From Buchnera aphidicola (Brachycaudus cardui) (GTDB lineage: Bacteria > Pseudomonadota > Gammaproteobacteria > Enterobacterales > Enterobacteriaceae): a stretch of DNA of 64,000 nt. Within the stretch, counting starts at the first letter, position 1. Each line of letters opens with the position of its first letter. The notes under the pieces were generated by a model. That model saw nothing but the letters and a program-made list of their open reading frames with translations, did no database searches and was not told the origin of the DNA. The stretch lies in contig NZ_CP034879.1 in NCBI RefSeq assembly GCF_005081945.1, positions 166,476 through 230,475 of the forward strand, read 5' to 3'. Shown here piece after piece: positions 2,090 through 53,210 of this stretch. The position numbers and the translations under genes were made by a program.

Positions 2090-2598
2090 ATGCATAAAAA
2101 AAAAGTGAATTTCGAGAAATTTCTATAAAATTTAAGTTAACAAATGAAGAAATAAATGCCATAGAAAATGAAAAAAAATTTTATGAAAATTCCAGAGCAG
2201 TTTCTATAGAAGCACTAAAGATTGTTCAAAAAAAACGAGGTTGGATTTCTGATCAAGCTATTTATGCCATTGCTGAAATACTCAATATTCATCCTAGAGA
2301 TGTCGAAGAAGTAGCTACGTTTTATAGTCAGATCTTTCGTCAACCTGTCGGTCGTAATATTATTCGTTATTGTGATAGTGTAGTTTGTTTTTTAACAGGT
2401 TATCAAATAGTAAAAAATACTTTAGAAAATTATTTAAACATAAAGATAGGAGAAACTACAAAAGATAAAAAGTTTACTTTATTACCAGTTTGTTGTTTAG
2501 GTAATTGTGATAAAGGTCCAACTATTATGATAAATGAAGATACATATTCTTTTCTCACTCCAGAATCTATACCACGTTTACTGGAGTCATATACATGA
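2090..2598 (+). pseudogene. nuoE: NADH-quinone oxidoreductase subunit E, frame broken at an A9 run
   Basis: 24 kDa subunit that binds the [2Fe-2S] cluster N1a next to the NADH site. From ATG 2090 the genomic frame gives only about 12 codons, then TAA: codon 2 is followed by nine A (2096-2104), which puts the rest out of frame. Adding one A restores a continuous frame of about 169 residues to TGA 2596-2598, close to the usual length of about 166. The restored protein keeps CDSVVC and [10 protein letters not shown], which supply the four cluster cysteines, and overlaps nuoF by ATGA. Everything except the A count looks conserved, so this is either rescued by RNA-polymerase slippage, a recent mutation, or a sequencing error. 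Typed as pseudogene only because the genomic frame is interrupted. Confidence 0.9.
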
Positions 2599-3929
2599 AG
2601 ACAATTTTACGTATTGAAGAGACACATCCTTTAACTTGGCGGTTAAGAGAAGATAAAAAAACTATTTATATTAAAGAATATTGCCAGAAGAATGGTTATG
2701 CGGCTTTAAAAAAAGCATTAAAAAATATATCTCCACTAGATATTATTAAAGAAATACAAGCATCAGGTTTAAAAGGAAGAGGAGGTGCAGGGTTTTCAAC
2801 TGGTTTAAAATGGAGTTTAATATCTCAAAGTAAATTTTCTGAAAATTGTCGATATTTAATATGTAATGCAGATGAAATGGAGCCGGGTACATATAAAGAT
2901 AGATTGCTAATTGAAAAAATTCCTCATCAGTTAATTGAAGGAATAATATTAAGTGCATATGCTTTAAATGTTTCCCGTGGTTATATTTTTTTAAGAGGAG
3001 AATATATTCAAGCTGAATATATTTTAAAAAAATCTATACAAGAAGCAATAGATTTTGGTTATATTGGTCCTAATATTTTAGGAAGCGGTTTTAATTTTGA
3101 ATTAATTATACATACTGGTGCTGGTCGATATATTTGTGGAGAAGAAACAGCTTTACTTAATTCTTTAGAAGGTCGTAGAGCTAATCCTAGATCTAAGCCA
3201 CCGTTTCCAGGGGTATTCGGTTTATGGGGAAAGCCAACATGTATCAATAATGTTGAAACATTATCTAATATTTCATCTATTATTTTGCATGGTGCTGATT
3301 GGTATAAATGTTTATCTAATAGTGTAGACACTGGCACTAAATTAATGGGTTTTTCAGGAAAAGTAAATAACCCTGGTGTTTGGGAATTACCCTTTGGAAC
3401 TACTGCTCGTGAAATTTTAGAAGATTATGCTTGTGGAATGAAGCCTGGTTTATCTTTAAAAGCTTGGCAACCTGGTGGTGCAGGAACTGATTTTTTGACT
3501 GAAATGCATTTAGATGTACCAATGGATTTCAATCATATTAAAGAAGCAGGTAGTCGATTAGGCACTGCTCTTGCTATGGCTGTTGATCATCAAACGAATA
3601 TGGTATCTTTAGTATACAATTTAGAAAAATTTTTTGCTCGTGAATCATGTGGTTTATGTACTCCATGTAGAGATGGACTTCCATGGATTGTAAAAATATT
3701 AAAAAGTTTAAAAGAAAAAAAAGGCCAACAAAATGATATAAAACATTTAGAACAATTATGTGTTCATTTAAGTCCAGGAAAAACATTTTGTGCTCATGCA
3801 CCGGGAGCAATCGAACCTTTGCAAAGTGCCATAAAATATTTTCGTCATGAATTTGAAGCTGGAATTAATACAAAAAAAATAGATTTAAATAAAAAAATTA
3901 TTGGAATTCAATCTAATTATTTTAGTTAA
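2595..3929 (+). CDS. nuoF: NADH-quinone oxidoreductase subunit F (NADH- and FMN-binding)
   Basis: 51 kDa subunit where NADH reduces FMN. Visible motifs: the glycine-rich nucleotide site [15 protein letters not shown] (around residues 57-72), [14 protein letters not shown], the second glycine-rich segment [13 protein letters not shown], and [12 protein letters not shown] plus a distal CAHAPGA cysteine, which ligate the [4Fe-4S] cluster N3. Length 444, against about 445 in E. coli. The ATG overlaps the stop of the nuoE frame by four bases, which suggests translational coupling and argues that nuoE is still translated to its true end. The basic asparagine/lysine-rich C-terminus is typical of AT-biased genomes. 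Confidence 0.97.
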
Positions 3930-3986
3930 AATGTTTAAATTTTTTTATATATTTATCTAAATAAAAGTTTTTGGAATTATCTTATT

Positions 3987-6716
3987 ATGGCTATAATTTA
4001 TGTAGATAGAAAAACGTATAATGTTGATTCGTCAGATAATTTATTGCAAGCATGCTTATCAGTAGGTATTAATATCCCTTATTTCTGTTGGCATCCTTTA
4101 TTAGGTAGTGTAGGAGTCTGTCGTCAATGTGCTATAACTCAGTACAATAACTTTGAAGATCATCAAGGTCGATTGATTATGTCTTGTATGACTCCTGTTA
4201 CAGATGGAGCAATATTATCTGTTAATAGTACTGAATCAGAACTTTTTAGAAGTTCCATTATAGAGTTATTATTAACTAATCATCCACATGATTGTCCAGT
4301 ATGTGAAGAAGGTGGTCATTGTCATTTACAGGATATGACTGTGATGACTAAGCATAGCATGCGTCATTATAGATTCAAAAAAAGAACACATAAAAATCAA
4401 TATTTAGGATCTTTTATTAAACATGAAATGAATCGTTGTATTACATGTTATCGTTGCGTTAGATATTACAATGATTATGCTGATGGTATTGATTTTGGAG
4501 TTTATGGAGCTAATAATAATATTTATTTTGGACGTGTAGAAGACGGTGCTTTAGAAAATGAGCACTCCGGTAATTTAATAGAATTATGTCCTACTGGTGT
4601 ATTTACTGATAAAACTCATTCTAAAAGATATAATCGAAAATGGGATATGCAATATGCTCCAGGTATATGTAACAATTGTAGTGTTGGTTGTAACATTAGT
4701 ATCGGAGAACGTTATGGTGAAATACGGCGAATAGAAAATAGGTATCATGAAAATATAAATCATTATTTAATTTGTGATCTTGGTCGTTTTGGTTATTTAC
4801 AAAATAATTTAACTGTTCGTCCAAAACAACCTATTCATAATGATAAAGAACAAACTATATTAAATTTTACACAAGCGATAGAACTTGGAGTTCTTTTTTT
4901 TCAACGATATAAGCGTATAATTGGTATTGGTTCTACTCGATCTAGTATAGAAAATAATTTTTCTTTACAAGAACTGGTAGGAAAAGAAAATTTTTCTCAT
5001 GGAATGATTGAAAAAGAACAAAATTGCACTAAATTAATTTTAAATGTTTTAAAAAATAATCACATATATATTCCATCTTTAAAAGAGATTGAAAGTTATG
5101 ATGTAATTTTAATCTTAGGAGAAGATTTAACACAAACTTCTCCTCGTATTGCTTTAGCAGTACGTCAAGCAATTAAGAAAAAAGCACAAGATATTACAAG
5201 CTTATATGGAATACCTAAATGGAATGTTTCTCCTATCAAGCAAATTATAGAAAATCATAAAAATTCTTTATATCTTATGCATACACATGAAACGAAATTA
5301 GATGATATTTCTGAGTGGTCTTATTTTGCATCTATTCGTGAACAAGTGAATTTAGCATGTGCTATTGCACATGAAATAGATAAAAGTTTACCTCCAGTTT
5401 TACATTTAAATACTTTTTTAAAAGAAAAAGCATTATTAATTGCTAATCGTTTAATGTTATCTAAAAAAGCATTAATTATTTCAGGTGTACATTCTTTTGA
5501 TAGTTCAATTATAAAGGCTTCTATAAATATAGCTAAAGCTATTAAAATTAAAAATTTGAATAACCATGTTGGTCTCACTTTATTAACAGCTTCTTCTAAT
5601 ACTTTAGGTGTGGGATTGATGGGAGGTATGTCTTTGGAATCTGCATTAGAAGAATTTAAGCAAGAAAAAGCAGACGCTATCATTTTTATGGAATACGATT
5701 TATATCGTTTTATATCTGAATATGATTGTGATTTTTTATTAAAAAATAAACAAAAAATAATGACTTTAGATCATCAATCTACTAAAACTTATAAAAAATC
5801 TGGATTAACTCTTTCCTCAACTAATTTTACAGAAAGTTCTGGAACAATAATAAACTTTGAAGGAAGAGCTCAGCGTTTTTTTCAAGTATATGATCCTAGT
5901 TTTTATAATAAAAATAATTGTGTTTTAGATAGTTGGAAATGGTTGCATTGTATCAAATCAAAGATTGATAATGTAGAAGAATCTTGGTCTAATTTAGATG
6001 ATGTAATAAATGCGTATACTGAAAAATATGAAATTTTAGAATCAATAAAAATAAAAGAATTAAGTTCTAGTTTTCGTATTCATGGTCAAAAAATTGCTCG
6101 TTCTCCTATTCGTTCTAGTGGTAGAACTGCTTTACATGCTAATATTAATATTCATGAGCCTTCTCAACCAAAAGATTTAAATACTATGTTTTCGTTTTCT
6201 ATGGAAGGATATAATCAACCTAATAAATCTGTATCTCATATTCCCTTTGCTTGGTTTCCTGGATGGAATTCTCCTCAAGCATGGAATAAATTTCAGGAAA
6301 AAATAGGTAAAAATTTAATATCTGGAGATTCAGGAATACATATTTTTAAAAAAAATACAAATGTAATACAAAATTATTTAAATTTAATTCCTTTTCATTT
6401 TATAAAAAAAGAATACTGGTACATAATCCCTTATTATCATATTTTTGGAAATGAAGAATTAACTCAGTATTCATCTGTAATACAAGAAAATATTCCTTTA
6501 TCATATGCCTTAATTAGTTTACTGGATGGAATTGAATTAGGTTTTAAAAAAGATTCTATAGTAGAATTTAATTGTTTAAATAAGAATTATCGTTTATCAA
6601 TACGATTATCTAAACATTTAAAACAAAAACAGATAGGCTTGCCTATAGGAAGAAAAGGATTTCCAATTACTCTTGTTGGTAATAAAATTAAATCGTTAAA
6701 GGAATTTATGAGATGA
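3987..6716 (+). CDS. nuoG: NADH-quinone oxidoreductase subunit G
   Basis: Large iron-sulfur subunit of the peripheral arm of complex I. The N-terminal 2Fe-2S domain has YFCWHP, GVCRQC and a following cysteine (N1b). [14 protein letters not shown] provides the His/Cys ligands of N5. [13 protein letters not shown] with CPTGVFT binds a [4Fe-4S] cluster. [10 protein letters not shown] plus CDLGRFGY forms the extra N7 site seen in enteric NuoG. The rest is a diverged molybdopterin-oxidoreductase-like domain with no expected catalysis. 909 residues, against about 908 in E. coli. The end overlaps the nuoH start by ATGA. The C-terminal half is lysine/asparagine rich and more diverged than the cluster domains. 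Confidence 0.96.
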
Positions 6717-7681
6717 TTTTTTTAGAATCACATATATTAACAATAATTTTTTGTTTGTTAAAAGTTATTTTTATTTTATTTTTTATAGTTTTTTCTGGTG
6801 CTCTTTTAAGTGTTATTGAACGTAGATTACTAGCATTATTTCAAAATAGATATGGACCTAATCGAGTTGGTTGGATGGGAAGTTTACAATTATGCGCTGA
6901 TATGATCAAAATTTTATTTAAAGAGGACTGGGTACCTCCGTTTAGTAAAAAATTTATTTTTATTTTATCACCAGTCATTGCTTTTGTTTCGTTATTATGT
7001 GTTATTCCAATCATTCCATTTAATTCTAATTTTTTTATTATTAATTTAAATATAGGAATATTATTTTTTTTAATGATGGCTGGCTTATCGGTTTATTCTG
7101 TATTATTTGCAGGTTGGTCTAGTAATAATAAGTATGCATTATTAGGAGCTATGCGCGCCTGTGTTCAAACTTTAAGTTATGAAGTTTTTTTAGGATTATC
7201 ATTAATGGGTGTAGTAGCTCAGTCAGGATCTTTTAATATTATAGATATTGTTAATAGTCAAAAAGAAGTTTGGAATATTTTTCCACAATTTTTTGGTTTT
7301 TTAACTTTTTTTATAGCAGGTTTAGCTGTTTGTCATAGACATCCATTTGATCAACCAGAATCTGAACAAGAATTAGCTGATGGTTACCATATTGAATATT
7401 CTGGTATGAAGTTTGGTTTGTTTTTTATTGGAGAATACATTTCTATTATTACAATTTCATTATTAATAGTAACAGTTTTTTTTGGTGGTTGGTTTGGACC
7501 TTGGGCATCAAGTTGTTTTTGGCTTTTTTTAAAAACATGTTTTTTTATTATTTTGTTTATTTTAATTCGAGCTTCTTTACCGCGACCAAGATATGATCAA
7601 ATGTTATCATTTGGATGGAAAGTTTGTTTACCATTAACATTATTTAATTTATTTATAACTGCTTTTTTTATATTATTGTGA
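6713..7681 (+). CDS. nuoH: NADH-quinone oxidoreductase subunit H
   Basis: Membrane subunit at the junction between the two arms of complex I, lining the quinone chamber. It shows multiple hydrophobic helices and the conserved matrix-side loops [21 protein letters not shown] (start of the family signature) and [22 protein letters not shown] with its acidic cluster, then [18 protein letters not shown]. Length 322, against about 325. It starts inside the end of nuoG (ATGA overlap). Its own TGA touches the next reading frame, leaving little room for independent regulation. Confidence 0.97.
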
Positions 7682-7704
7682 ATTTTATAAGAGATTTTTT
7701 ATTT

Positions 7705-8247
7705 ATGATTTTAAAAAATATTATTATCGGCTTTATAACACAAATAAGAAGTATTTTAATGATTGGTTTGAATATTTTTTCGAAAGCAGAAACGCAATCG
7801 TATCCAGAAGAAAAAGTAAATTTATCTCCTCGTTATCGCGGTCGTATTATATTAACACGTAATTTAGATGGAAATGAACGTTGTGTTGCTTGTAATTTAT
7901 GTGCAGCAGTTTGTCCTGTTGATTGTATTTCGCTTCAAAAATCTGAGAAAATAGGAGGTCGTTGGTATCCTGAATTTTTTAGAATTAATTTTTCTCGTTG
8001 TATTTTTTGTGGTTTATGCGAGGAGGCATGTCCAACAGCTGCTATTCAATTAACTTCAGATTTTGAACTCGCTGATTTTAAGAGAAAAGATTTAGTCTAT
8101 GAAAAAGAAGATTTATTAATTTCTGGTCCAGGGAAATATTCAGATTATAATTTTTATAATTTTTCTGGAGTTGCTATAAAAGAAAAAAATATAGGTGAAT
8201 TAAATATTGAATCTAAACCTATTAACGTAAAGGATTTATTACCATAA
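7705..8247 (+). CDS. nuoI: NADH-quinone oxidoreductase subunit I (2x[4Fe-4S] ferredoxin-like)
   Basis: Carries clusters N6a and N6b that relay electrons toward NuoB. Two typical motifs are present: [15 protein letters not shown] and [15 protein letters not shown], each CxxCxxCxxxCP. The C-terminal block [17 protein letters not shown] is strongly conserved. The frame is open back to a GTG at 7678 that overlaps the nuoH stop. I prefer ATG 7705 because it aligns with the E. coli start, gives 180 residues as in E. coli, and has AAGAGA upstream. A GTG 7678 start would add 9 residues and is not excluded. Confidence 0.95.
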
Positions 8248-8257
8248 GGAGATTTTT

Positions 8258-8773
8258 ATGGAATTTGTTTTTTATATATGCGCATTTATAGCAGTTATTT
8301 CTACTTTTTGTGTAATTATTCAAAAAAACGCAGTATATTCTTTATTATATTTAATTATTTCTCTTTTATCAGTATCTGGTATTTTTTTTACACTTGGTGC
8401 TTTTTTTGCAGGTGCTTTAGAAGTTATTATTTATGCTGGAGCTATTATAGTATTATTTGTTTTTGTTATTATGATGCTTAATCTTGGTGATAAAAATGAT
8501 ATAAAAGAAGCAAAATATTTAAAGCCTTACTTTTGGATTGGACCTAGTTTATTATCATTAATATTATTTTCATCAATGACTTATGCGATATTTTTTTTAA
8601 AAGAAAAAAAAATAGAATGGTTTCTAATTGACTCAAAAATGATTGGTATTAGTTTATTTGGCCCTTACGTATTATTAGTTGAACTATCTTCAATTCTTTT
8701 ATTATCTGCTTTAGTTGTTGTATTTCACATTGGTACAGAAAAAAATAAATCAAACATCAATCATAATAATTGA
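8258..8773 (+). CDS. nuoJ: NADH-quinone oxidoreductase subunit J
   Basis: Small membrane subunit of complex I with five predicted hydrophobic segments in 171 residues. The middle segment GALEVIIYAGAIIVLFVFVIMML is the conserved family signature of the pi-bulged helix that transmits conformational change. E. coli NuoJ is slightly longer (about 184); the difference is at the C-terminus. Preceded by AAGGAG at the normal spacing after nuoI and followed 21 bases later by nuoK, so it is an internal operon gene. Confidence 0.95.
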   Translation: MEFVFYICAFIAVISTFCVIIQKNAVYSLLYLIISLLSVSGIFFTLGAFFAGALEVIIYAGAIIVLFVFVIMMLNLGDKNDIKEAKYLKPYFWIGPSLLSLILFSSMTYAIFFLKEKKIEWFLIDSKMIGISLFGPYVLLVELSSILLLSALVVVFHIGTEKNKSNINHNN

Positions 8774-8794
8774 TATCTATAAGGATCATGAGTA

Positions 8795-9097
8795 ATGATT
8801 TCTTTATTTTACGGCTTGTTTTTATCATTAATATTATTTATCTTAGGTTTAACATCTTTAATTGTACGACGTAATATATTATTTATATTGATTAGTTTAG
8901 AAATCATGATCAATGCTGCTGGATTAGCATTAATAGTAGCAGGTAGTTATTGGCAACAAGTAGATGGTCAAATAATGTATATATTCGTGATTACTTTAGC
9001 TGCGTCAGAAGCAAGTATAGCTTTAGCATTATTACTTCAAATTTATAGACGTTGGAAAACATTAAATATTGATATTTTAAGTGAGATGCATGGATGA
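8795..9097 (+). CDS. nuoK: NADH-quinone oxidoreductase subunit K
   Basis: 100 residues, the same length as E. coli NuoK. Three hydrophobic helices carry the conserved buried glutamates in [15 protein letters not shown] and [16 protein letters not shown], part of the proton path next to NuoJ and NuoN. The stop overlaps the nuoL ATG (ATGA), so the two are probably translationally coupled. AAGGATC precedes the start. Confidence 0.96.
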
Positions 9098-10935: not shown

Positions 10936-11021
10936 TGTAGTATACAATAAATTATTTTTTTAATGATAAAAACAATTTCATTGAAAAAACACTTATAGTA
11001 TATAATAGGAATATATGTGTG

Positions 11022-12539: not shown

Positions 12540-12545
12540 TTAGGA

Positions 12546-14018: not shown

Positions 14019-14065
14019 TTACAAATATTTTTTTAAAAAAAATAGGATTGAGATTAGTGATTTAT

Positions 14066-15010: not shown

Positions 15011-15046
15011 AAGTTTTTTATTTAAGATATAATATATTTTTTTATA

Positions 15047-15100
15047 AAAAGATTTTAGAATTATCATATAATATAATTATGATTATAATCTAAATCTTTT
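15047..15100 (+). terminator. possible imperfect terminator hairpin after alx
   Basis: AAAAGATTTTAGAATTAT and ATAATCTAAATCTTTT face each other and pair with two single-base bulges; AAAATTTTCATTTT follows. It sits in the 243-base spacer between alx and folC, where I see no gene. A very AT-rich stem, so a weak call. Confidence 0.3.
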
Positions 15101-15253
15101 AAAATTTTCATTTTATAAAAATAATTTTATCTATAAAAGTCATTTTTAGTCTATAAACATTTTATGTTTAGTGTTTTGAATAATTTATATATTTAAAAAA
15201 TATTTATATTTTTATTCCATTTTTTTGTTATGTAATATAATTATAAGAGTTAC

Positions 15254-16529: not shown

Positions 16530-16982
16530 ATGTTTCTAATAGATTATATTATTGTTTTTACTGTTTTTATTTCAATTTTTTTAGGTTTATCACGTGGTTT
16601 TTTACAAGAATTTATTTCTTCTTTTTTTTGGTTTTTTAATTTTTATTTTTTTTATAAGTATTATTATTTTAGTTCTTTTTATATAAATGCTTTTCAAGAT
16701 ATTTTTTTTAAAAATAAAATTTTAATATTAATTATATTTTTTTTTATTATAAAAAAAATATTAAATTATGGTGTGCAAAAAATAATTAAAAAAATAAATC
16801 TTGTTTTTTTAAATATTATTTTAGGAGGTTTGTTTGGAATATTTCGTAGTTTTATATTAGTATTTCTATTTCTGTTAATTTTTAAACATTTTTCTAGTGC
16901 TCTAAGCTATTATACTTATATACAAAGTTCGTTTTTAATTAATGTTTTTTTTAAAATTACATACTTTTTTATTAATTTATAA
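16530..16982 (+). CDS. cvpA: CvpA family inner-membrane protein
   Basis: 150-residue, very hydrophobic protein with four membrane segments and a short GLSRGFLQEFISSFFW motif at residues 19-34 characteristic of CvpA (colicin V production protein). GGLFGIFRSFILVFL is the second recognisable block. E. coli CvpA is about 162 residues. Located directly after folC as in E. coli, but the usual downstream purF is missing. Composition is dominated by Phe, Ile, Leu and Lys, showing extreme AT drift. Its cellular role here cannot be read from the sequence. Confidence 0.85.
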   Translation: MFLIDYIIVFTVFISIFLGLSRGFLQEFISSFFWFFNFYFFYKYYYFSSFYINAFQDIFFKNKILILIIFFFIIKKILNYGVQKIIKKINLVFLNIILGGLFGIFRSFILVFLFLLIFKHFSSALSYYTYIQSSFLINVFFKITYFFINL

Positions 16983-17078: not shown

Positions 17079-18041
<963 letters not shown>

Positions 18042-26666: not shown

Positions 26667-26680
26667 ATTATAATATGAAT
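26661..26680. repeat. 20-base perfect palindrome at the nrdB stop/yfaE start
   Basis: ATTCATATTATAATATGAAT reads the same on both strands. It contains the nrdB stop codon and the yfaE start codon. In RNA it could fold only as a tight or intermolecular stem, so it may simply be AT-rich coincidence, but it covers the initiation site of yfaE. Confidence 0.75.
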
Positions 26681-27798
26681 TTTTTAAATTCATTGTCAGA
26701 TACTTCTGAATCAATTTGGCCTACTAAATAAGAACTAATTTCTGTTTCTTGCGGAGCATTTTGAACGTGATCTGAAGTTAACCAAGAATTAATCCAAGGA
26801 ATTGGATTAGAGTGTTTTTTAAAAGGTATTTTAAGACCGATTGCTTGCATCCGCATATTAGTGATATATTCTATGTATTGACAAAGTATGTCTTTATTTA
26901 ATCCTAACATTGATCCATTTTGAAATAAGTATTCAGCCCATTTTTTTTCTTGTTCTGCTGCTAATATAAATATATTAATAGCCTCTTCTTTACATTCTAA
27001 AACAATATGTCTCATTTCTTCATTAGTATTTATATCACTTAAAAGATTTAAGATATGTTGAGTACCAGTTAAATGTAAGGCTTCATCTCGTGCTATTAAT
27101 CTAATAATTTTTGCATTTCCTTCCATTAATTCTCTTTCTGCAAATGCAAAAGAGCATGCAAAACTAACATAAAATCTAATTGCTTCTAATACATTAACAC
27201 TTATTAAACATAGATATAGTCTTTTTTTGATCAAATCTAAATTAATATTAATTTTTTTTCCTTTTATTAAATGTACTCCTTCTCCCAGTAAATGCCAATA
27301 ACTAGTTATTTTTATTAACTCATCATAGTATATAGAAATATTTTGTGCTCGATCATTAATATTTTTATTTGAAATAATATCGTCAAATATTAAAGATGGT
27401 GAATTAACAATATTTCTAATTATATGAGTATAAGATCGTGAGTGAATAGTTTCTGAGAAAGACCATGTTTCAATCCATGTCTCTAATTCAGGAATAGAAA
27501 TAATTGGTAAAAAAGCAATATTAGGACTTCTACCTTGAATTGAATCAAGTAATGTTTGATATTTTAAATTACTCGTAAAAATATGTTTTTCATGTGCAGG
27601 TAAATTTTGAAAATCTATTCTATCTCGAGAGAGATCTATTTCTTCAGGTCTCCAAAAAAATGATAATTGTTTTTCAATTAATTTTTCAAATATATTGTAT
27701 TTTTGTTGATCATATCGTGCAATATTTACAGGTTGTCCAAAAAACATTGGTTCTTTAAGTTGATTATTTTTTTTTTTTGAAAAAATTGTATAAGACAT
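26668..27798 (-). CDS. nrdB: Ribonucleoside-diphosphate reductase subunit beta
   Basis: Class Ia R2 subunit holding the diiron-tyrosyl radical. [15 protein letters not shown] gives Glu, His and the radical Tyr; [13 protein letters not shown] supplies further iron ligands. 376 residues, the same as E. coli. It begins [10 protein letters not shown], and codons 7-11 contain an uninterrupted run of 12 A (27767-27778 on the plus strand as T), a slippage-prone site near the start. AGG lies upstream of the start. The order nrdA-nrdB-yfaE is the E. coli operon order. Confidence 0.97.
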
Positions 27799-34447: not shown

Positions 34448-35114
34448 ATGAATACAAAATTATCTTGGAAAGACGTTTTATCTCAAGAAAAAAAAAAGAT
34501 ATTTTATTAATATAATAAGCTTTCTGAAACAAGAACGTTTAAAAAAAACAATTTATCCAGATCAAAAAGATATCTTTAATGCTTTTTTATACACTAATTT
34601 ATATAATATAAAAGTTGTAATTCTTGGACAAGATCCTTATTTTTCCAAAAAACAAGCACATGGATTAGCATTTTCTGTTTTTAAGAATTGTACTATACCA
34701 CCTTCTTTACAGAATATATATAAAGAGTTAAATAGTGATTTTCAAAAAAAGCATTTTTTTCATCATGGATGTCTTGAAGGTTGGGCTAATCAAGGTGTTT
34801 TTTTATTAAATACGATTTTAACAGTAGAATCAGGGAAACCAAAATCACATAGTACTATAGGATGGAACATTTTTACTGATAAAGTAATTTCTATAATTAA
34901 TTTATATAAAAATAATATTATTTTCTTACTATGGGGAAATGATGCACAAAAAAAATCTAATTTAATTGATATAAATAATCATTATATCTTAAAATCTTCT
35001 CATCCATCTCCATTATCAGCATACAGAGGTTTTTTTGGTTGTAAACATTTTTCTAAAACAAACAAAATTTTAGTGAAAAATAAAAAAAAACCAATTAATT
35101 GGTTTATAAATTAA
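34448..35114 (+). pseudogene. ung: Uracil-DNA glycosylase, frame broken at an A10 run
   Basis: Removes uracil from DNA. The ATG 34448 frame (MNTKLSWKDVLSQEKKK) stops at TAA after about 20 codons. Dropping one A from the ten at 34488-34497 opens a continuous frame to TAA 35112-35114, about 221 residues against 229 in E. coli. The restored protein has GQDPYF (E. coli GQDPYH) with the catalytic Asp, QAHGLAFSV, LLNTILTVE, GWNIFTDKVI and HPSPLSAYRGFFGC with the catalytic His. All blocks are conserved, so the break is either rescued by slippage, very recent, or a base-count error. Divergent from ahpC. Confidence 0.88.
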
Positions 35115-37155: not shown

Positions 37156-37518
37156 TGGAGCTGGCGGGATTTGAACCCGCGTCCAAAATCTCTACTAATA
37201 AAGTACTACATGCTTAGTTTTTTCTTTATTACATTCATATCCTAATTTGGAAAAACTCATTTTAGGTATATAGCTTGAAATTATTTACGTGTCATTACCA
37301 AGCTTAATGTTCACGTTTTTCTCTTTTTTGACCTTCCTATATTTCTCGTCCTAAGAGAGAAGGCTGAGAAGGAAGGGCTTTATACAGTTTTTTAAGCTGC
37401 TAAAGCGTAGTTTTGTTTATTATTTGCAGCTATTTTTTTACGGCTTTTAACGAGGCAAACCGTTCCTCGGCATGCACTTTACTTTGTTGATAATTTTGTC
37501 GAATCCAAAAACAGCCCC
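37156..37518 (-). ncRNA. ssrA: transfer-messenger RNA (tmRNA)
   Basis: Rescues stalled ribosomes with SmpB. The 5' GGGGCTG (37518-37512) pairs with the 3' CAGCTCC (37157-37163), and the T-arm CGGGATTTGAACCCGCGTCC is visible on the plus strand at 37164-37183. The length is 363 bases, the E. coli length. The discriminator A is at 37156, and no CCA is encoded (AAA follows), so CCA must be added. The tag frame is internal (37427-37392). Downstream pseudoknot arms and CATGTAGTA are conserved. Located between bamE and grxD. Confidence 0.97.
37392..37427 (-). other. tmRNA tag reading frame
   Basis: Resume codon GCA then AAT AAT AAA CAA AAC TAC GCT TTA GCA GCT TAA encodes ANNKQNYALAA, against ANDENYALAA in E. 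coli. The ALAA end recognised by proteases is kept; the middle is changed by one insertion and asparagine/lysine substitutions typical of AT drift. Confidence 0.9.
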
Positions 37519-40418: not shown

Positions 40419-40456
40419 TATAAAAACTTTGTCTTATTTATAAAGGTCTATCAGAT

Positions 40457-41545: not shown

Positions 41546-41584
41546 ATATATTACTGTTTTAAAAAATATATTTTGTAATGTTTT

Positions 41585-41617
41585 TTTAGAGAGGAAATAT
41601 AATTTATCCTCTCTAAA
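41585..41617 (+). terminator. terminator of ychF
   Basis: TTTAGAGAGGA (41585-41595) pairs perfectly with TCCTCTCTAAA (41607-41617) around an 11-base loop, followed on the plus strand by TTTTTTAG. It lies 39 bases after the ychF stop and 5 bases from the convergent thrC stop; the minus-strand side lacks a U tail. Confidence 0.8.
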
Positions 41618-41621
41618 TTTT

Positions 41622-43845: not shown

Positions 43846-43862
43846 TGCTATGCTCCTGACGT

Positions 43863-46313
43863 TTATGATAGTGTACGTAGTAAGTCGGAAAATACTCCAG
43901 ACGCGGTCACTTTATTACCAGCCCCATAACCTCTTAGCACAAGAGGAATTGGTTGGTAATAATGAGTATAAAATGCTAGTGCATTTTCACCATTTTTTAC
44001 TTTGTATAATGGGTTATTGATATTAATTTCTTCAATTTTTACATGACACTGTCCTTTTTTGTCTATGGTACCGACAAATCTTAATACATTACCTATATTA
44101 TGTGCTTTATGAACACGATTTAAAAAATATTCATCTAGTTTTTTTAACTGTAAAAAAAATTCATCAATATTGTTATTTTTTTTAAAATAATCAGGTAACA
44201 CAGGTTCAATTTTAATATCTTGTAGTTCTATTTCATATCCAGCTTCACGTGCTAAAATAAGTAATTTTCTAGCAACATCTATACCTGATAAATCATCATA
44301 TGGATTTGGTTCAGTAAAACCTAATTCTTTAGCTTCTTTAGTAGCTTGTGATAATAAAACACCTTCTTCTAATCTTCCAAAGATAAAAGATAAAGAACCA
44401 GATAGTATGCCTTTAAAACAAATGAGATTATCTCCTGTTTTAAATAAGTTTTGCAGTGTTTCTATAACTGGTAATCCCGCACCTACATTAGTTTCATATA
44501 GAAATTTTTTATTAGTTTTACAAATAGCACTTCTAATTTGTTTATAATAAGGTAGTGTACCAGTATTAGCCTTTTTATTTGATGCTACTACGTGACAGTT
44601 ATTGTATAGAAAATAAACATATTGTTCAGATAACAATTGATCAGATGTACAATCAATTATAACTGGATTTAAAAAATGATATTTTTTTATAAACTCATTT
44701 AAAACGTGTAGATTAAATATTGTGTTTGATTTTTTAAAATTATTTTCCCAATCATATAAGCTTGTTTCTTGATCTAATATTAATATTTTTTTAGAATTAG
44801 CAATGGCTAAAACTTTAATTTTTATATTTTTTTCATCTAGATATTTTTGTTGTTTTAATATTTGTCGAAGTAGTGAGCTACCAATGCTACCTATGCCAAT
44901 TAAACATACATAAATGATTTTTTTATTATTATAAAATAATATATCATGAACGTTTTGGACTGATTTTAAAATGTGTTTTTTTTCAATAACTAATGAAATA
45001 GAATGTTCTGAAGAACCTTGTGCAATTGCAAGAATATTAATTCTAGCATTACCTAAAGAAGAAAAAATTTTAGATGCAATATTATGTTTTTGATAAATAT
45101 TAGATCCTATTACTGAAAGAATAGATAGATTATTTATTATTTTAAAAGGATTTAATAATTTATCTTTTAACTCTAATTGGAACTCTTTATTTAATAAAGA
45201 TAATATTTTATATATTTTATTATTTATAATACAAAAAATAATTTTATTTTCTGATGATGATTGAGTCATCAGTATAATTTTAATATTATGTCTTGAGATT
45301 ATAGTAAATATACGTGGAATAATATTTTCTATATGTTTTATAGAAGGTCCAGATATATGAAACATAGTTATATCATCAATATGTGTAACACCTTTCAAAA
45401 AGCTTTCTTCAGAGTTGTTTTTTTCACAAATTACAGTTCCATTTGATTCAATATTATTAGTATTTTTAATAAAACATGGAATTTTAAATTGAGAGATTGG
45501 TTCTATAGTACGCGGGTGTAATACCTTAGCCCCAAAATAAGACAGTTCCATAGCTTCTTGATATGATATTGATTTTAATAAATGCGCATTGGGTACTATT
45601 CTGGGATCAGCAGTAAAAACTCCATCCACATCTGTCCAAATTTCACAACTATTTGCATCTAAACATGCGGATAAAATAGCAGCAGAATAATCAGAACCAT
45701 TACGTCCTAGTACTACTAGTTCTTTATCTTGATTGCCTGCAATAAATCCAGGCATTAAAATAATATTATTTTTATTTATATCTATTTTATTAATACGTTT
45801 CTTAGATTCAGATATGTTAACACTAGAATCTAAGTAATGACCTATAGATAAAAAATTTTCGACAGGATTAATGATAGTAATACTATATTTTTTAGATTCT
45901 AATATACTTTTCATTATAAAAATTGAAAGTATTTCTCCACGAGAAATAATAATTGCACGAATACTATCTGGACATTGTTTTAATAATATAACACCCTGTA
46001 CTATACTTTTTAATTCATTAAACTCTTTTTTTATAATCGTTTCTATTTCTTGATAATTGATATTAGATTGTATTTTTAATAGCTCATTAATAAGCTGAAT
46101 AAATATACTTTCTACAAGGTTTATTGTTTCTAATATTTCATTATTATAATTTTTTTTTTCTATAATAGAAACTAAATAATTAGTTACCTTAGCTGGTGCT
46201 GATAGTACAACTGCAATTTGTTCAAATTTATTTTTTTTTTCTATAATATTAGCTACAGATAAGAATTTTTCTGCATTAGATAATGAAGTACCACCAAATT
46301 TTAATAATTTCAT
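43863..46313 (-). CDS. thrA: Bifunctional aspartokinase I / homoserine dehydrogenase I
   Basis: Catalyses the first and third steps of the aspartate pathway to threonine. N-terminal aspartokinase ([46 protein letters not shown]), ACT regulatory region (about 300-460) and C-terminal homoserine dehydrogenase ([38 protein letters not shown]). 816 residues, against 820. Retained as one fused chain. The ACT region and the inter-domain linker are lysine/isoleucine rich. AAGGAAT is upstream of ATG. Behind an attenuator-like terminator, so possibly regulated by Thr/Ile supply. Confidence 0.97.
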
Positions 46314-46343
46314 ATTTTATAATTCCTTAAATTTATTTCATAA

Positions 46344-46372
46344 AAAACCCGCCTTAAGTATGAGCGGGTTTT
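46344..46372 (-). terminator. thr attenuator terminator upstream of thrA
   Basis: On the minus strand AAAACCCGC and GCGGGTTTT (9 pairs, GC-rich for this genome) flank an 11-base loop, followed by further T. It lies 31 bases upstream of the thrA start, where E. coli has its GC-rich thr attenuator. The unusually high GC in a sea of AT makes conservation likely. Confidence 0.8.
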
Positions 46373-46402
46373 CAAAAACATATGATTTTGGCCCACATCA
46401 TG

Positions 46403-46491
46403 ACTAGTTATAATAATTAGAATAGCTATTCTAGTGAAGAGGCTATAAATAGATATTAAGATTTTTTTATGAATACGTATAGTACGTTCAT
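46403..46491 (-). promoter_or_regulatory. remnant thr leader region with Ile/Thr codons
   Basis: In one frame on the minus strand, 46435 to 46403 reads T-R-I-A-I-L-I-I-I-T-S, seven of eleven codons Ile or Thr, as in thrL-type leader peptides. That frame has no nearby ATG; the nearest ATG (46491) is in another frame and stops after 11 codons, with an A7 run between them. TAGAATAGCTATTCTA (46418-46433) is a perfect palindrome in the same stretch. Probably a decayed or unusual leader, not a proven peptide. Confidence 0.5.
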
Positions 46492-46552
46492 TTATTAGGT
46501 ATTTTTTTATATAATTTGAATATTGTATGAAAAAGATTCTTCTTGTCTTCAA

Positions 46553-46947
46553 ATTATTATAAAGTATTAGTATTATTAATTTTATATATTAAATATATTG
46601 AATTAAAAATGTTGTTTTTTATACGAAAAAGAATTTTTTAGTTTTTATAAATTTGATGTCATATTTTAATTTAGATATAAAATATAACATAAATTACATT
46701 GTCATATAGCTAGAATATATCTTTTTATAATTTTTTTAATGTTTAAAATAATTTATTATTAATAGTTTTCTTATTTGATTAATTTTTATAACATAATGAT
46801 CATTATTAGTGCAATAGTTAAAAAAATAAATATTTTATTTTTTCTTGAAAATACTCAACTTAATTATTATACATACTGTATTTTTTAAATAAAAAAATCA
46901 GTATATCCTTTTAAATTTTAATTTACATTCAACATTTAGTTAATATT
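46553..46947. other. spacer between divergent thrA and hpt, no gene seen
   Basis: About 395 bases between the thr leader and hpt, extremely AT-rich. It must hold promoters for the thr operon (minus) and hpt (plus), but I see no convincing paired minus-35/minus-10 and no gene, tRNA or repeat. Confidence 0.6.
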
Positions 46948-47481
46948 ATGAATCATATTATTAAAGTTATTATTTCTGAAAAAGAGCTTGATATACGTGT
47001 TCGAGAATTAGGTCGAGAAATTACTAAAAAATATCGTCATAGTAGAAATAAAATGATCTTGATTGCTTTACTACGTGGTTCTTTTGTATTTATAGCAGAT
47101 TTATGTCGTAGAATTCATATTAAACACGAAGTAGATTTTATGACAACCTCTAGTTATGGTCGTGGAATATTATCTAGTGGCGATGTAAAAATTATCAAAG
47201 ATTTAGATGAAGATATTTATAATAAACATGTTTTAATTGTCGAAGATATTATTGATTCTGGAAAAACTTTAAGTAAAGTATCAGATATATTAAAGCTTAG
47301 AAATCCAAAGTCATTATCAATTTGTACTCTTTTAGATAAACCAGAATGTCGTGAAGTTAATATTAGTGTTGACTTTATAGGATTTTCTATTCCAGATGAT
47401 TTTATTGTGGGTTACGGTATTGATTATGCTCAATCTTATCGTTATTTACCATATATCGGTAAAGTGATTTTTAAAAAATAA
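46948..47481 (+). CDS. hpt: Hypoxanthine phosphoribosyltransferase
   Basis: Salvages hypoxanthine (and guanine) to nucleotides using PRPP. PRPP loop [18 protein letters not shown] around residue 98; [19 protein letters not shown] and the C-terminal [20 protein letters not shown]. 177 residues, close to E. coli (178). Links to prs (PRPP supply) and guaC in this window. Convergent with panC, 9 bases between the stops. Confidence 0.95.
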
Positions 47482-47490
47482 AAATATTTT

Positions 47491-48348
47491 TTAATTGAAA
47501 AATATTTTTTTATTGTCAATTAGACGAGTTCTTCCTAACGAAACAGATGCTAAAAGTATCATTTTTTTTGTAGTTTTATCTGGAATATTTAATGTTTTGT
47601 AATGATATACATTAAATATATCAATAGAAAATCCTTTTTTTAATAGTAATATTTTAGATTCCTGAATAATTTCTTCAATAGAATTAATATTACCTTTTTG
47701 AATAATTTTTGTAGATGTTTGCTTTATGATTTTATATAAATAAGGCGCTATTTTTGTCTGTTTAGAATTTAAATTATTATTTCTAGAACTGAGAGCAAGT
47801 CCGTTTTTTGATCGTACTATAGGTAGACTAATGATTTTTATTGCATAATTTAATTCTGCTACAAGTGTTTTAATTATTAATAATTGTTGATAATCTTTTT
47901 CTCCAAAAAAAGAAAAATCTGGTTGTGTTATATTAAATAGTTTAGCGATAATTGTCGTAACACCTTGAAAATGTCCAGGTCGATATTGACCTTCTATAAT
48001 GTCAGATAGTTTTGGTACCTTAATAAAGGTTTGATTTTTTAGGTTATTAGAATACATTTCATGTATATCAGGAAAAAAAAGAATATCTATTTTATTATTT
48101 TTTAAGATTTTACAATCTTCTTCAAAGCTTTTAGGATAATTTTTAAAATCTAATACATTGTTAAATTGTATCGGATTAATAAAAATACTTACAATAGTAA
48201 TATCAACATATTTTTTTGATAATAAAATTAACTGTATATGACCGTTATGTAAGTTTCCCATTGTAGGAACTAGTCCTATTTTTTTATCTGTTTTTTTTAA
48301 ATATTTTATTTTTTCATATAAATCTTTTAAATTTTTAATTATATACAT
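47491..48348 (-). CDS. panC: Pantothenate synthetase
   Basis: Joins pantoate and beta-alanine using ATP. HIGH-type motif in VPTMGNLHNGHIQLI (about residues 28-42), FFGEKDYQQL, VRSKNGLALSSRN. 285 residues, against 283. Directly follows panB with 14 bases between, the order panB-panC of E. coli; panD (beta-alanine) is not here. Product goes to CoA, whose last step enzyme CoaE is also in the window. Confidence 0.96.
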   Translation of the reverse strand: MYIIKNLKDLYEKIKYLKKTDKKIGLVPTMGNLHNGHIQLILLSKKYVDITIVSIFINPIQFNNVLDFKNYPKSFEEDCKILKNNKIDILFFPDIHEMYSNNLKNQTFIKVPKLSDIIEGQYRPGHFQGVTTIIAKLFNITQPDFSFFGEKDYQQLLIIKTLVAELNYAIKIISLPIVRSKNGLALSSRNNNLNSKQTKIAPYLYKIIKQTSTKIIQKGNINSIEEIIQESKILLLKKGFSIDIFNVYHYKTLNIPDKTTKKMILLASVSLGRTRLIDNKKIFFN

Positions 48349-48362
48349 ATAATACCTTTTTT

Positions 48363-49154
48363 TTAAAAACTATATTTTTTATTAGGATACATACCAGTTT
48401 TTACTTCATTAATATATTGCTGAATAGCTTGTGTAATACTTCTGCCTTCAGACATGAAATTTTTTGCAAATTTTGGTATTTTTCCTTGATTAATACCTAA
48501 TAGATCTTGCATTACAAGAATTTGTCCATCAGTATATTTGCCTGCTCCTATTCCAATGACTGGAATTGATAAATTTTTAGTTATTTTTTTTGCTAATTGT
48601 TCTGGAATACACTCTAATACAAGCATTTTAATCCCTGCTTCTTCTAATAAAAAAGCTTCATCTATTAATTGATTTTCATCTTTTTGTTCTTTCCCTTGAA
48701 TTTTATAACCACTTAAATAATTAAAAGATTGTGGTGTTAAACCTATATGACCGCAGACTAATATTAATCTACTAGATAATTCTTTAATGATTTCTATTAA
48801 CCATTTTCCACCTTCTATTTTTATCATATTTGCACCAGATTGTATTATTTTTGCTGTATTTTTAAGAGCTTCTTTAGTATTGTAATAAGACATAAAAGGT
48901 AAATCAGATAATAAAAAACTTTTAGATGTTCCTTTTCTAACTGCTTTAGTATGATATTCAATATCTTGAATCGTTACAGGTATTGTAGAAGCATGTCCTT
49001 GAATAGTCATACCAAGAGAATCACCTATCAGCATAATTGGAATACCTTGATTAGAAAATAGTTTTGAAAAGCTAAAGTCATAAGCAGTGATAGCTGCAAA
49101 TTTATTTTTGTTTTTCTTCCAATTATTTATTTGAGAAATAGTGATACATTCCAT
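48363..49154 (-). CDS. panB: 3-methyl-2-oxobutanoate hydroxymethyltransferase
   Basis: Makes ketopantoate from 2-oxoisovalerate. Blocks [35 protein letters not shown] with the metal-binding Asp, [20 protein letters not shown] and [15 protein letters not shown]. 263 residues, against 264. ATG preceded by GAGGTAAAT. First gene of panBC, with a strong hairpin of dksA between it and the upstream gene, so it probably has its own promoter. Confidence 0.96.
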
Positions 49155-49192
49155 ATTTACCTCATTTTATTTGAAAAATATAAAAAAATAAG

Positions 49193-49234
49193 AAGGATAT
49201 TCGAGATTATTTTATCAATTAATCGAATATCCTT
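49193..49234 (-). terminator. terminator of dksA
   Basis: AAGGATATTCGA (49193-49204) and TCGAATATCCTT (49223-49234) are perfect 12-base complements around an 18-base loop. On the minus strand CTTATTTTTTTATA follows. It is 27 bases after the dksA stop and before panB. Confidence 0.7.
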
Positions 49235-49260
49235 ATTCAAGAATAATATAAGTTGTTTAA

Positions 49261-49716
49261 CTAACCAGTCATTTGCTTTTCTCTAATTTCTGCTAATGTC
49301 TTACAATCGATACAAAGATTTGCAGTCGGTCTAGCTTCTAAACGACGAATTCCAATTTCAATACCACAGGAATCACAATAACCAAAATCTTTTTCGTTAA
49401 TTTTTTTTAAAGTTACTTCAATTTTTTTAATTAATTTTCGACTACGATCTCGATTTCTTAGTTCTAAGCTAAATTCTTCTTCTTGTGTTGCCCGATCAAT
49501 AGGATCAGGAAAATTAGTAGCTTTATCTTGTATATAGAGTAGCGTATGGTTGATTTCATCTTGTAGTTGATTTTTCCATGTCTCAAGAATTTTATAAAAG
49601 TGTAACATTTGATCTTCATTCATGTATTTTTCGTCTATTTTTTTTTTATAGGGTTTTAAACCTGCAATTGAAAGAACATTTAAAGATGATGTTTTTTTGT
49701 TTTTTTCTTTTTCCAT
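49261..49716 (-). CDS. dksA: RNA polymerase-binding transcription factor DksA
   Basis: Binds the secondary channel of RNA polymerase and works with ppGpp. Coiled-coil region from about residue 33 to 108 and a C4 zinc finger [20 protein letters not shown]...[14 protein letters not shown] with four Cys. 151 residues, identical in length to E. coli. The coiled-coil tip Asp-rich motif [15 protein letters not shown] is intact. Notable in a genome with few regulators. Confidence 0.97.
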
Positions 49717-50077
49717 AGTTCTCTCCGAAATAATTTATTTGATGAAATTGAATATGAAAGTGTTTTCTAATAAAATATTTTTTAAAATTATTGATATCTT
49801 TAAGAATAAAGATTTATATCGCAAAACAATTTAATTTATATTTTTTTATAATGGTATTTTTGTAATAAAAATTTTAAAAAAAATAATTTATATATTTTAG
49901 ATATATAAGATGTGCTTGATTTTATGTCTATAAAAATTATTATAATAAATATTTTTAACATAAACTATAATTAAATATATTTTTTACAGTGTTGAATGTT
50001 TTAAGAAGACTAGTCTTAGTTTATGTATCAATATTTATTTTTTTATAATAAATTTCACAATAGGACGTTTTATAGAC
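49717..50077. other. spacer between divergent dksA and truA, no gene seen
   Basis: About 361 bases of AT-rich sequence with promoters presumed for both genes. I find no gene, tRNA or repeat in it; in E. coli other genes sit next to dksA, so it may hold eroded remains beyond recognition. Confidence 0.55.
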
Positions 50078-50878
50078 ATGATAAAAAAAAATGTTAAAAA
50101 ATTTGCTTTAGGAGTTGAATATGATGGAAGTTTTTATCATGGATGGCAACGTCAAAATACAGTATCTAGTATTCAAGAACAAATAGAAAAAGCTTTGTCT
50201 ATCATTGCTAATCATAAGATAGATGTTGTATGTGCAGGTAGAACTGATGCTGGAGTTCATAGTATAGGACAAGTCATTCATTTTAATACTACAGCTATTC
50301 GAAAAAAATCATCTTGGACAATAGGAGTCAACCGTTATTTATCTAAAGATATTGCTGTTGTCTGGATTAAAGAAGTTCCAGAAGATTTTCATGCACGTTA
50401 CAGTGCTATTACACGTTCTTATCGTTATATAATATATAATCATCGTTTTCGTTCTGCTATTTTTCGAAATAGATTTAATCATGTTTATAAGAGTCTCAAT
50501 GTAAATAAAATGAACATTGAAGCTCAATGTTTGTTAGGAGAACATGATTTTACATCTTTTCGAGCAAGAAATTGTCAGTCACGTTCCTCTTGGAGGAAAA
50601 TTATAAAACTAAATGTATGGCGTTACGCAGATTTAGTCGTAATTGATATTATAGCTGATTCGTTTTTATATCATATGGTTCGTAATATAGTTGGTTCCTT
50701 AATTGAAATTGGAATGTCTAAAAAAAAAGAGTTTTGGATACAAGAATTATTACAAAAAAAAAATAGAATTTATGCTGGACCTACAGCGCCAGCTAAAGGT
50801 TTATATCTATTATTTGTACAGTATCCTTTACGTTTTAATTTACCACAAGTAACATATAATTCTATTTTTATTAAGTAA
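50078..50878 (+). CDS. truA: tRNA pseudouridine(38-40) synthase TruA
   Basis: Modifies U38-U40 in tRNA anticodon arms. Catalytic Asp57 in [32 protein letters not shown] at the N-terminus and [17 protein letters not shown] near the end. 266 residues, against 270. The next gene, mrcB, begins 35 bases later on the same strand. Confidence 0.96.
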
Positions 50879-50913
50879 AAAATATTATTGATATCTCTGG
50901 AGTATATTTTTTT

Positions 50914-53210
50914 ATGTATATAAATGTAAAAAAAAAAGAAAAATTTTAATAAAAATACTTTTTTTAATATTTATTTTAATTATATTGTATGGCTTTTATT
51001 TGTACGAAAAAATAGGACAATCAATTCAAGGTAAAGTATGGAGTTTTCCTACATCAATATATGGACGTATAGTTAATTTAGAACCAGGTAATCCATATTC
51101 TCAGAAAGAAATATTAAGTCTTTTAAAAGGCACTATGTATAGACAAGTGCATACTGTGATGTTACCGGGTGAATATAGTATAAAAGATAACACTATAGAT
51201 TTTATACGACGTTCTTTTGATTTTCCAGATATTAAAGAAGGTGAATTTCATACACGATTATCTTTTAAAGAAGGTATTTTAAAAGAAATTAAAAATATTG
51301 AAAATAATCGTAATTTTAGTTTTTTCCGTTTAGAACCTAAATTAATCACTATGTTAAAATCTTCTCAAGGGAAAAAACGTATATTTATTCCTCGTAATAA
51401 ATATCCAGAAATTTTAGTTAAAACACTATTGGCTATTGAAGACAGATATTTTTATGAACATGATGGTATTAATATATCTTCTATAGGTCGCGCTTTTTTA
51501 GTAAATGCTATAGCAGGTCGAGCAATTCAAGGAGGTAGTACTCTTACTCAACAATTAGTAAAAAATCTTTTTTTAACTAATACACGTTCTATTTTAAGAA
51601 AAATCAACGAAATGTATATGGCTTTGATTTTAGACTGTTTTTATACAAAAGATAGAATTTTAGAATTATATTTAAATGAAGTATATTTAGGTCAAGATGG
51701 TGATGAGCAAATAAGGGGATTTCCACTTGCAAGTATTTATTATTTCGGTCGTCCAATAGATGAGTTAAGCTTAGAACAGTATGCGTTATTAGTTGGAATG
51801 GTAAAAGGAGCTTCTTTATATAGTCCTTGGGCTCATCCTATTTCTGCATTAAAAAGAAGAAATTTAGTCTTATTTTCATTATATAATCAAAAATACATTA
51901 CTAAAGATATATATAGAAAATTATGTAAAAGAGGATTAAATGTTCAATCTAAAGGTAATATTATTGCACCTCATCCTTCTTTTATACAACTTGTACAATC
52001 TGAATTACAAAAAAAAATTACTACTTCCATAGAAAATATTTCAGGTATAAAAATATTTACTACTTTAGATTCTATATCACAAAATGCAGTAGAACAAGCT
52101 GTAAAAATAGAAATTCCTATATTAAAACAAAAAAAGGGATTAAAAGATTTAGAAGTTGCCATGATAGTCATGGATAAATTCACTGGTGAGATTCAAGCAC
52201 TGATTGGAAGCGCTAAGCCAGAATTTAACGGCTATAATCGTGCTTTAAAATCTCGACGTTCAATTGGTTCATTGTCTAAGCCGATAACATATTTAACTGC
52301 TTTATCAGAACCAAATAAATATCATTTAAATACTTGGATTTCTGATCATCCTATTGCTATTAAATTAGATAATGGTCAATATTGGATGCCAAAAAATAAT
52401 AATTATCGTTTTAGTGGAAAAGTAATGTTATTAGATGCTTTAATTCATTCAATAAATATTCCAACAGTTAATTTAAGTATAGATATAGGTTTAAAAAAAC
52501 TAGTTGATAGTTGGTTACATTTAGGTGTTTCTAAAAATCATATTACTCCTTTTCCATCTATATCTTTAGGAGCTATTAATTTAACACCGATTGAAACTGC
52601 ACAAGTATTCCAAATAATTGCTAGCGGTGGTTATAAATCATTATTATCTTCAGTTAGATCTGTGATATCTGATGATGGTAAAGTATTATATCAAAGTATA
52701 CCTCAAAAAAAACATATAGTTTCTTCTGAAGCATCTTATTTAACATTATACGCTATGCAGCAAGTAGTTGAGCATGGAACAGCTAAATTATTAGGTAAAC
52801 ATTTTAAGGAATTTTCTTTAGCAGGAAAAACTGGGACTACAAATAATTTAGTAGATAATTGGTTTGTAGGTATTGATGGTAAAACAATTGTAATTATTTG
52901 GATTGGAAGAGACAATAATAAAACAACAAAATTATATAGTTCTTCCGGAGCAATGCAAATTTATCGAAAATACCTTGAATATCAACGTCCAGTACCATTA
53001 GTATTGCAACCTCCAAAAGGTATTAATATGTTTTATATAAATAAATTAGGAAAATTATTTTGTAATAAAAATAATGATCATGATCGATCTTTACCCATAT
53101 GGTCTTTAAATAATCAAACTATTTGTCATGATGGTAAATTATTAGAACAGAGTCTTGAAACAAGAAATAAAAAAGATTTTCTATTTTGGTTAAAACATTT
53201 ATTTTTATAA
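50914..53210 (+). CDS. mrcB: Penicillin-binding protein 1B, frame break near the start at an A10 run
   Basis: Bifunctional peptidoglycan synthase. Transglycosylase motifs EDRYFYEHDGI and GGSTLTQQLVKNLFL; transpeptidase SIGSLSKP, SIN and KTGTTN are all present. The frame open from TTG 50985 lacks the membrane anchor. ATG 50914 starts MYINVKKK but stops after 11 codons; the ten A at 50928-50937 separate it from the main frame. One extra A would join them into a basic segment and transmembrane helix (ILIKILFLIFILIILYGFYLY), about 765 residues against 844 in E. coli, whose extra length is mostly N- and C-terminal tails. RBS TCTGGAG precedes ATG 50914. Confidence 0.88.

What the first reader, a model, noticed from the sequence alone, without database searches (positions are those of the whole stretch)
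2090..53210. Every frame break in the window falls in an A9-A10 run
I found three interrupted conserved genes (nuoE, ung, mrcB), and each is a single-base length change at a poly-A run, two needing +1 and one needing -1. No other kind of disruption was noticed. This points to A-run slippage as the main route of frame loss, or to a systematic homopolymer error in the data.
Basis: partly seen in the sequence, partly recalled or inferred. Interest (0 to 1): 0.8.

Follow-up and report, generated by a model that had tools for sequence, protein, structure and literature searches.

The report
Ancient slippage-tolerated breaks in Buchnera genes
In this aphid symbiont several needed genes are written out of frame at runs of nine or more A, and the same breaks recur in related species while the genes stay intact on both sides, so they look like long-lived breaks that the cell tolerates rather than sequencing mistakes or dying genes; the general phenomenon is already known.

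Summary
The window is Buchnera aphidicola (aphid symbiont). Genome-wide I count 16 well-supported split genes (plus 3 doubtful), all at sense-strand A runs of 9 or more; 14 of 16 have the phase that one extra A in the mRNA would correct.

They are neither assembly errors nor fresh losses. The nuoE start codon is off-frame with its gene in 32 of 34 Buchnera genomes read, always in the same phase. ung is off-frame in 19 of 30 read, while its body is found in 36 of 36. murF is split in 29 of 35, 28 in the same phase. The three window genes' bodies evolve under ordinary purifying selection. Best explanation: poly(A) tracts lose frame by replication slippage, and the break is tolerated because transcription (or the ribosome) slips often enough to make full-length protein. 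This is the published Buchnera/Blochmannia phenomenon, so: new members of a known kind. I did not find the genus-wide nuoE break or the phase bias in the papers I could search. Caveat: one study of Buchnera transcripts detected no frame-restoring error.

The parts
2090..2104 (+). nuoE start codon (2090) and A9 tract (2096-2104); start frame and body frame differ by 2 mod 3
2098..2598 (+). nuoE body, open frame of 166 aa without any ATG/GTG/TTG in its first 60 codons
   Evidence: NuoE family
34448..34497 (+). ung amino-terminal piece (conserved LSWKDVLSQE frame) ending in the A10 tract 34488-34497
34452..35114 (+). ung body open frame, uracil-DNA glycosylase; phase 1 against the amino-terminal piece
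50914..50937 (+). mrcB start codon (50914) and A10 tract (50928-50937)
50892..53210 (+). mrcB body open frame (penicillin-binding protein 1b); phase 2 against the upstream start

Best explanation
In this Buchnera, A-runs of nine or more in the sense strand change length during DNA replication and put parts of genes out of frame. Many of these breaks are not the end of the gene. They persist because RNA polymerase (and perhaps the ribosome) slips on the same A-run at a useful rate, so that a fraction of mRNAs, or of translation events, joins the two frames and full-length protein is made. Shown here: location, phases, sharing across the genus, conserved coding on both sides. Inferred: the slippage itself and its yield; the inference leans on published Buchnera and Blochmannia work.
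For: All 16 well-supported breaks in the chromosome are at sense A>=9. nuoE: phase 2 in 32 of 34 genomes, phase 1 in none; one change of state on a 28-genome tree that holds one of the two in-frame genomes; 24 of the 32 off-frame genomes have no ATG/GTG/TTG in the first 20 codons of the body frame. ung: body matched in 36 of 36 genomes (one, G034, with a stop inside the match); frame state 0/1/2 in 11/14/5 of 30 genomes, at least 11 changes on the tree; its amino-terminal 11 codons keep pN/pS 0.27 among the 19 off-frame genomes. murF split in 29 of 35 genomes, 28 in phase 2. G000-G041 pN/pS of the bodies of nuoE, ung and mrcB lies at the 43rd, 49th and 62nd percentile of 540 genes. Papers, passages only unless said: Blochmannia vafer has eight such genes, treated as possibly correctable (PMC3017870); 12-50% corrected transcripts in aphid-symbiont cell-wall genes and an ant-symbiont gene (PMC5009743); 8-18 homopolymeric frameshifts per Aphidinae Buchnera genome (PMC3164680); single-base transcription insertions rise exponentially with run length in Buchnera (PMC5574713, section 7 read).
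Against: [quoted passage not shown] No RNA, read or protein data could be examined here. ung is mostly in the phase that a single added A would not correct. mrcB is eroded in 11 and not found in 3 of 36 genomes, so it is dispensable in some lineages. The phase bias is partly shared by junctions without a long tract.
Confidence: 0.72

Rival explanations
1. Systematic homopolymer error in the assembly: the tracts are really in frame.
For: All breaks are at A>=9 runs, where errors concentrate; the assembly has two N runs outside the window. No reads were available.
Against: The same phase appears in other genomes of the genus: nuoE 32 of 34, murF 28 of 35; at least 33 other sense A>=9 tracts in the window are in frame; errors should fall in both phases, but 14 of 16 are phase 2; murF states equal published ones. 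How the other genomes were sequenced was not checked.
Confidence: 0.05
2. Ordinary pseudogenes: recent or repeated inactivation with nothing made from the downstream part, as PMC3164680 counts many of them.
For: mrcB is eroded or missing in 14 of 36 genomes; PMC3164680 reads murF as four independent inactivations; no frame-restoring transcript errors found in PMC5574713.
Against: nuoE and ung bodies are found in every genome searched (36 of 36) with ordinary pN/pS in this genome; nuoE and ung off-frame states occur in both main clades of the tree; cmk, mutL, hemD, fabD and murF keep both halves.
Confidence: 0.13
3. For the near-start cases (nuoE, mrcB) translation begins downstream at another codon, and the upstream ATG plus A-run is only a leader.
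For: In nuoE the run starts at the third codon; 8 of 32 off-frame nuoE genomes do have an ATG, GTG or TTG within 20 codons (an ATG four codons in, in G008 and G015); mrcB has an in-frame TTG at 50985.
Against: 24 of 32 off-frame nuoE genomes have no such codon in the first 20; a free leader should drift among phases, but nuoE never shows phase 1 (0 of 34). It cannot explain breaks inside genes (murF, fabD, cmk, ung).
Confidence: 0.1

Closest known systems
Poly(A) frameshifts rescued by transcriptional slippage in Buchnera and Blochmannia (Tamas et al. 2008; seen as a citation only, findings through passages of PMC5009743 and PMC3164680)
   Same: Same genus, same tract type and length, frame broken inside otherwise intact genes, including cell-wall genes (here murF, and murE in G041).
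   Different: nuoE, ung and mrcB are not named in the passages that I read; here the state is followed over up to 36 genomes.
Ancient frameshifts kept by selection in homopolymers (Wernegreen et al. 2010, Blochmannia; title seen in a reference list only, content recalled)
   Same: Frameshift shared by related symbionts without decay of the gene.
   Different: Other genus and, as recalled, other genes.
Homopolymeric frameshifts counted in Aphidinae Buchnera (PMC3164680, passages)
   Same: 8-18 per Aphidinae genome; murF broken in several lineages.
   Different: Read there mostly as independent inactivations; with 35 genomes the off-frame murF is the common state and nearly always in one phase.

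Membership tests
Slippage-tolerated poly(A) frameshift of insect symbionts | frame changes at a homopolymeric A/T run, other parts of the gene in frame | tested here: met
Slippage-tolerated poly(A) frameshift of insect symbionts | gene retained and under purifying selection despite the break | tested here: met
   weaker for mrcB, which other lineages have lost
Slippage-tolerated poly(A) frameshift of insect symbionts | same break shared by related genomes | tested here: met
Slippage-tolerated poly(A) frameshift of insect symbionts | mixed mRNA population with corrected frame | not testable with these tools
   no RNA data; literature both ways
Slippage-tolerated poly(A) frameshift of insect symbionts | full-length protein made | not testable with these tools
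   no proteome data
Ordinary pseudogene | relaxed selection or further disabling changes downstream of the break | tested here: not met
   pN/pS at 43rd, 49th, 62nd percentile of 540 genes; no stop in the three bodies
Sequencing homopolymer artefact | state absent from independent genomes | tested here: not met

The most novel reading that the evidence does not exclude
The off-frame poly(A) tracts are a standing, phase-selected recoding system of the genus rather than tolerated accidents: tracts are held in the one phase (one A short) that the commonest slippage event corrects, for nuoE across nearly all genomes read, and may set protein dosage.
Probability: 0.3. Interest if true: 0.65.

Novelty: new member of a known kind. 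Interest (0 to 1): 0.42.

Why it matters
It warns annotators against calling these genes dead or mending them, and it supplies a testable set: nuoE, murF, ung, fabD, cmk, mutL and hemD with known phases, the first four in many species. A phase bias, if confirmed, would let sequence alone tell tolerated breaks from decaying genes in reduced genomes.

Tried and rejected
A-only specificity: all breaks counted in this genome are at A runs, but sense A>=9 tracts outnumber T>=9 by 368 to 48, so nothing follows; relatives G041 and G008 have a T10 break in cvpA.

The first census gave many false breaks from wrong start codons. hisC was wrongly flagged as a lost start (seen). Small, rRNA-region or ambiguous-start ORFs (C1 83990, 101196, 290449, 414019, 543869, 545455) were set aside by eye; only gene clusters with two or more references were judged (565 of 572). 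That census missed breaks shared with the references (hemD, cmk, mutL, lolE and others), found only by the frame-overlap search. There, neighbouring genes with their own ATG were dropped by eye, and fliK, nlpD and the unnamed gene at 621577 were left as doubtful. Its 24 junctions with no run of 9 or more and no ATG near the second frame were taken by eye for neighbouring or RNA-region frames; several of them, such as those at C1 231508, 285265 and 310032, have no ATG in the first 50 codons and were not explained.

Phase controls, phase 2 to phase 1. Junctions with a run of 9 or more and no ATG in the second frame: G000 11:1 (one of the 11 is the doubtful 621577), G041 9:0, G043 9:0, G008 6:0. 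Junctions without such a run, ATG present: 50:42, 50:38, 51:40, 40:17. Without such a run and without ATG: 15:9, 15:6, 16:4, 10:1, so these also lean to phase 2, which weakens the contrast. With such a run and ATG: 5:3, 3:2, 2:1, 5:0. Fisher 11:1 against 50:42, p = 0.014; binomial 14:2 for the 16 genes, p = 0.004. The 16 were chosen by eye and the four genomes share many breaks by descent.

Deletion bias as a cause of the phase bias: polarised intergenic tracts gave 5 gains and 5 losses (3 ambiguous) among 39 comparable; few, and biased to long runs in this genome; inconclusive.

The mrcB scan of G007 hit a wrong place and is not counted. PMC10851558, PMC9672956 and PMC5814848 (passages) gave nothing on these breaks; PMC9672956 says that the Buchnera of Ceratovacuna japonica has lost all peptidoglycan genes.

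Full report
What the window is. The window is C1:166476-230475 of a 654,826-base, three-contig genome. Five relatives in the same genus have chromosomes whose lengths equal published Buchnera aphidicola strains: G008 640,681 (A. pisum Tokyo), G014 641,454 (Sg), G017 641,794 (Ak), G037 615,380 (Ua) in PMC3164680 (passage), and G043 643,517 (Mp strain G002) in PMC3890641 (passage); lengths. I therefore take the genus to be Buchnera. The host species of this genome is not known to me.

The three breaks. nuoE, ung and mrcB each show an upstream start whose frame disagrees with the conserved body, and the change falls at A9 (2096-2104), A10 (34488-34497) and A10 (50928-50937). Phase is (body minus amino-terminal frame) mod 3; phase 2 means one base too few, phase 1 one too many. 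nuoE 2, ung 1, mrcB 2. Families confirmed by Pfam and NCBIfam.

Genome-wide. Aligning conserved genes of three relatives to this chromosome (572 gene clusters, 565 with two or more references; read) gave six clear breaks without looking at tracts: priA A10, ung A10, murF A12, rsmC A10, flgN A9 and fabD A11. A second search for overlapping conserved open frames, which also sees breaks shared with relatives, gave 136 junctions and added rsxC A9, a lytic transglycosylase (MltC/EmtA-like) A10, lolE A10, cmk A10, recC A10, mutL A10, hemD A9, and a nucleotidylyltransferase that I take for nadD at A11. HMM hits to complementary parts of one model support hemD, cmk and lolE; two domains support mutL; only the first half was matched for recC, the transglycosylase and nadD (the second half of recC was not scanned). 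The names priA, murF, rsmC, flgN, fabD, rsxC, cvpA and truA rest on recall, not on an HMM call here. With nuoE and mrcB that makes 16; fliK A13, nlpD A17/A9 and an unnamed gene at C1 621577 are doubtful. Phases of the 16: fourteen 2, two 1 (ung, rsmC). No break at a T run and no clear non-tract break was found in this genome, within the limits told under Tried and rejected. Relatives do have them: cvpA at T10 in G041 and G008 and two non-tract changes in G008, C3 29971 and 370630, besides eroded genes.

Denominators. Conserved ORFs of this genome hold 368 sense A>=9 and 48 sense T>=9 tracts, so A-only is expected from abundance. In the window 32 sense A>=9 and 5 sense T>=9 tracts lie in frame in listed ORFs.

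Across the genus. nuoE: body matched in 36 of 36 genomes; tract read in 34 of 36 (no locus for G032 and G034): phase 2 in 32, in frame in G011 and G014, phase 1 in none (rows). Among the phase-2 genomes the run is 9, 10 or, in G045, 12 long. ung: body in 36 of 36; tract read in 30 of 36: in frame 11, phase 1 14, phase 2 5. mrcB: matched in 33 of 36, 22 loci read: 10 phase 2 (one, G003, also has an in-frame ATG upstream), 1 phase 1, 10 with an in-frame ATG, 1 not readable; the other 11 are eroded. murF: matched in 35 of 36, split in 29, phase 2 in 28 and phase 1 in G045. fabD: matched in 36 of 36, split in 10, phase 2 in 8 and phase 1 in 2; 8 of the 26 unsplit matches hold one stop, not looked into. 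priA: matched in 36 of 36; of the 16 two-piece cases computed, 7 change frame, all phase 2, and 9 keep it; G018 and G010 have three pieces and were left out. murF, fabD and priA were chosen because they are broken in this genome.

Evolution. On a quick protein tree of 28 genomes from nuoE and ung bodies (363 columns, 10 of 25 inner branches unresolved), the fewest changes are nuoE 1, murF 5, fabD 8, ung 11; G011 is not in the tree. Root and direction are not inferred, so gain and loss of frame cannot be told apart. Both G000 and G041 carry all three breaks, yet their body pN/pS are 0.21 (nuoE), 0.22 (ung) and 0.26 (mrcB), against a median of 0.23 for 540 genes. The ung amino-terminal 11 codons have pN/pS 0.27 in 19 off-frame genomes and 0.49 in 11 in-frame genomes, pooled over pairs. 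So both sides of the ung break are conserved as protein while out of frame with each other.

Mechanism. Established elsewhere: AT-rich symbiont genomes accumulate A/T runs that slip in replication, and transcripts of such genes can be corrected. Passages read: PMC3017870, PMC5009743, PMC3164680, PMC4389277, PMC5574713 with its section 7. PMC5574713 finds 151 of 157 Buchnera transcription insertions in homopolymers, against 16 of 57 deletions as one passage puts it (another gives 70 deletions), and insertions rising exponentially with run length; that would favour phase 2. The same paper found no frame-restoring transcription error, which is the main evidence against. Phase 2 is also what a minus-one ribosomal slip would correct; ung (phase 1 in 14 of 19 off-frame genomes) does not fit that, but fits RNA slippage by one deletion or two insertions. 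I cannot decide between RNA polymerase and ribosome from sequence.

What is new. In the library searched and the passages opened I found no mention of the nuoE, ung or mrcB breaks of Buchnera or of a phase bias. Most listed papers were not opened, supplementary tables could not be read, and the two key papers (Tamas 2008, Wernegreen 2010) were seen only as citations. So absence from print is not established.

Noticed in passing
G000 C1:243590-244966 (outside the window): murF is split at the same place, about residue 250, in 29 of 35 Buchnera genomes with both halves kept; published work on fewer genomes read this as four independent inactivations.
   Followed up: partly
G041 C2 about 183052 and G008 C3 about 182060 (window counterpart 16530-16982): cvpA (name recalled) is split at a T10 run, phase 2, in two relatives; in this genome the T9 run is in frame.
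   Followed up: partly
window 27767-27778 (minus strand): Sense A12 run close to the start of the ORF 26668-27798 (nrdB by gene order, recalled), in frame here.
   Followed up: no
window 50720-50763: truA (name recalled) carries A9 and A10 runs in frame here; the orthologue in G043 is split at A11.
   Followed up: partly
G000 C1:620490-621949 (outside the window): Gene in two conserved halves joined at A9, split likewise in G041 and G043; no Pfam match for either half and no NCBIfam match for the longer half.
   Followed up: partly
G000 C1 about 231508, 285265, 310032, 356071 (outside the window): Conserved frames whose first ATG lies more than 90 codons in, with no long A run beside them: other start codons, or something not understood.
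   Followed up: no
G000 C1:230476-230537 and 253319-253362: Runs of N, the first one starting at the base after the window end.
   Followed up: no
window 37156-37518: tmRNA gene with tag ANNKQNYALAA.
   Followed up: no
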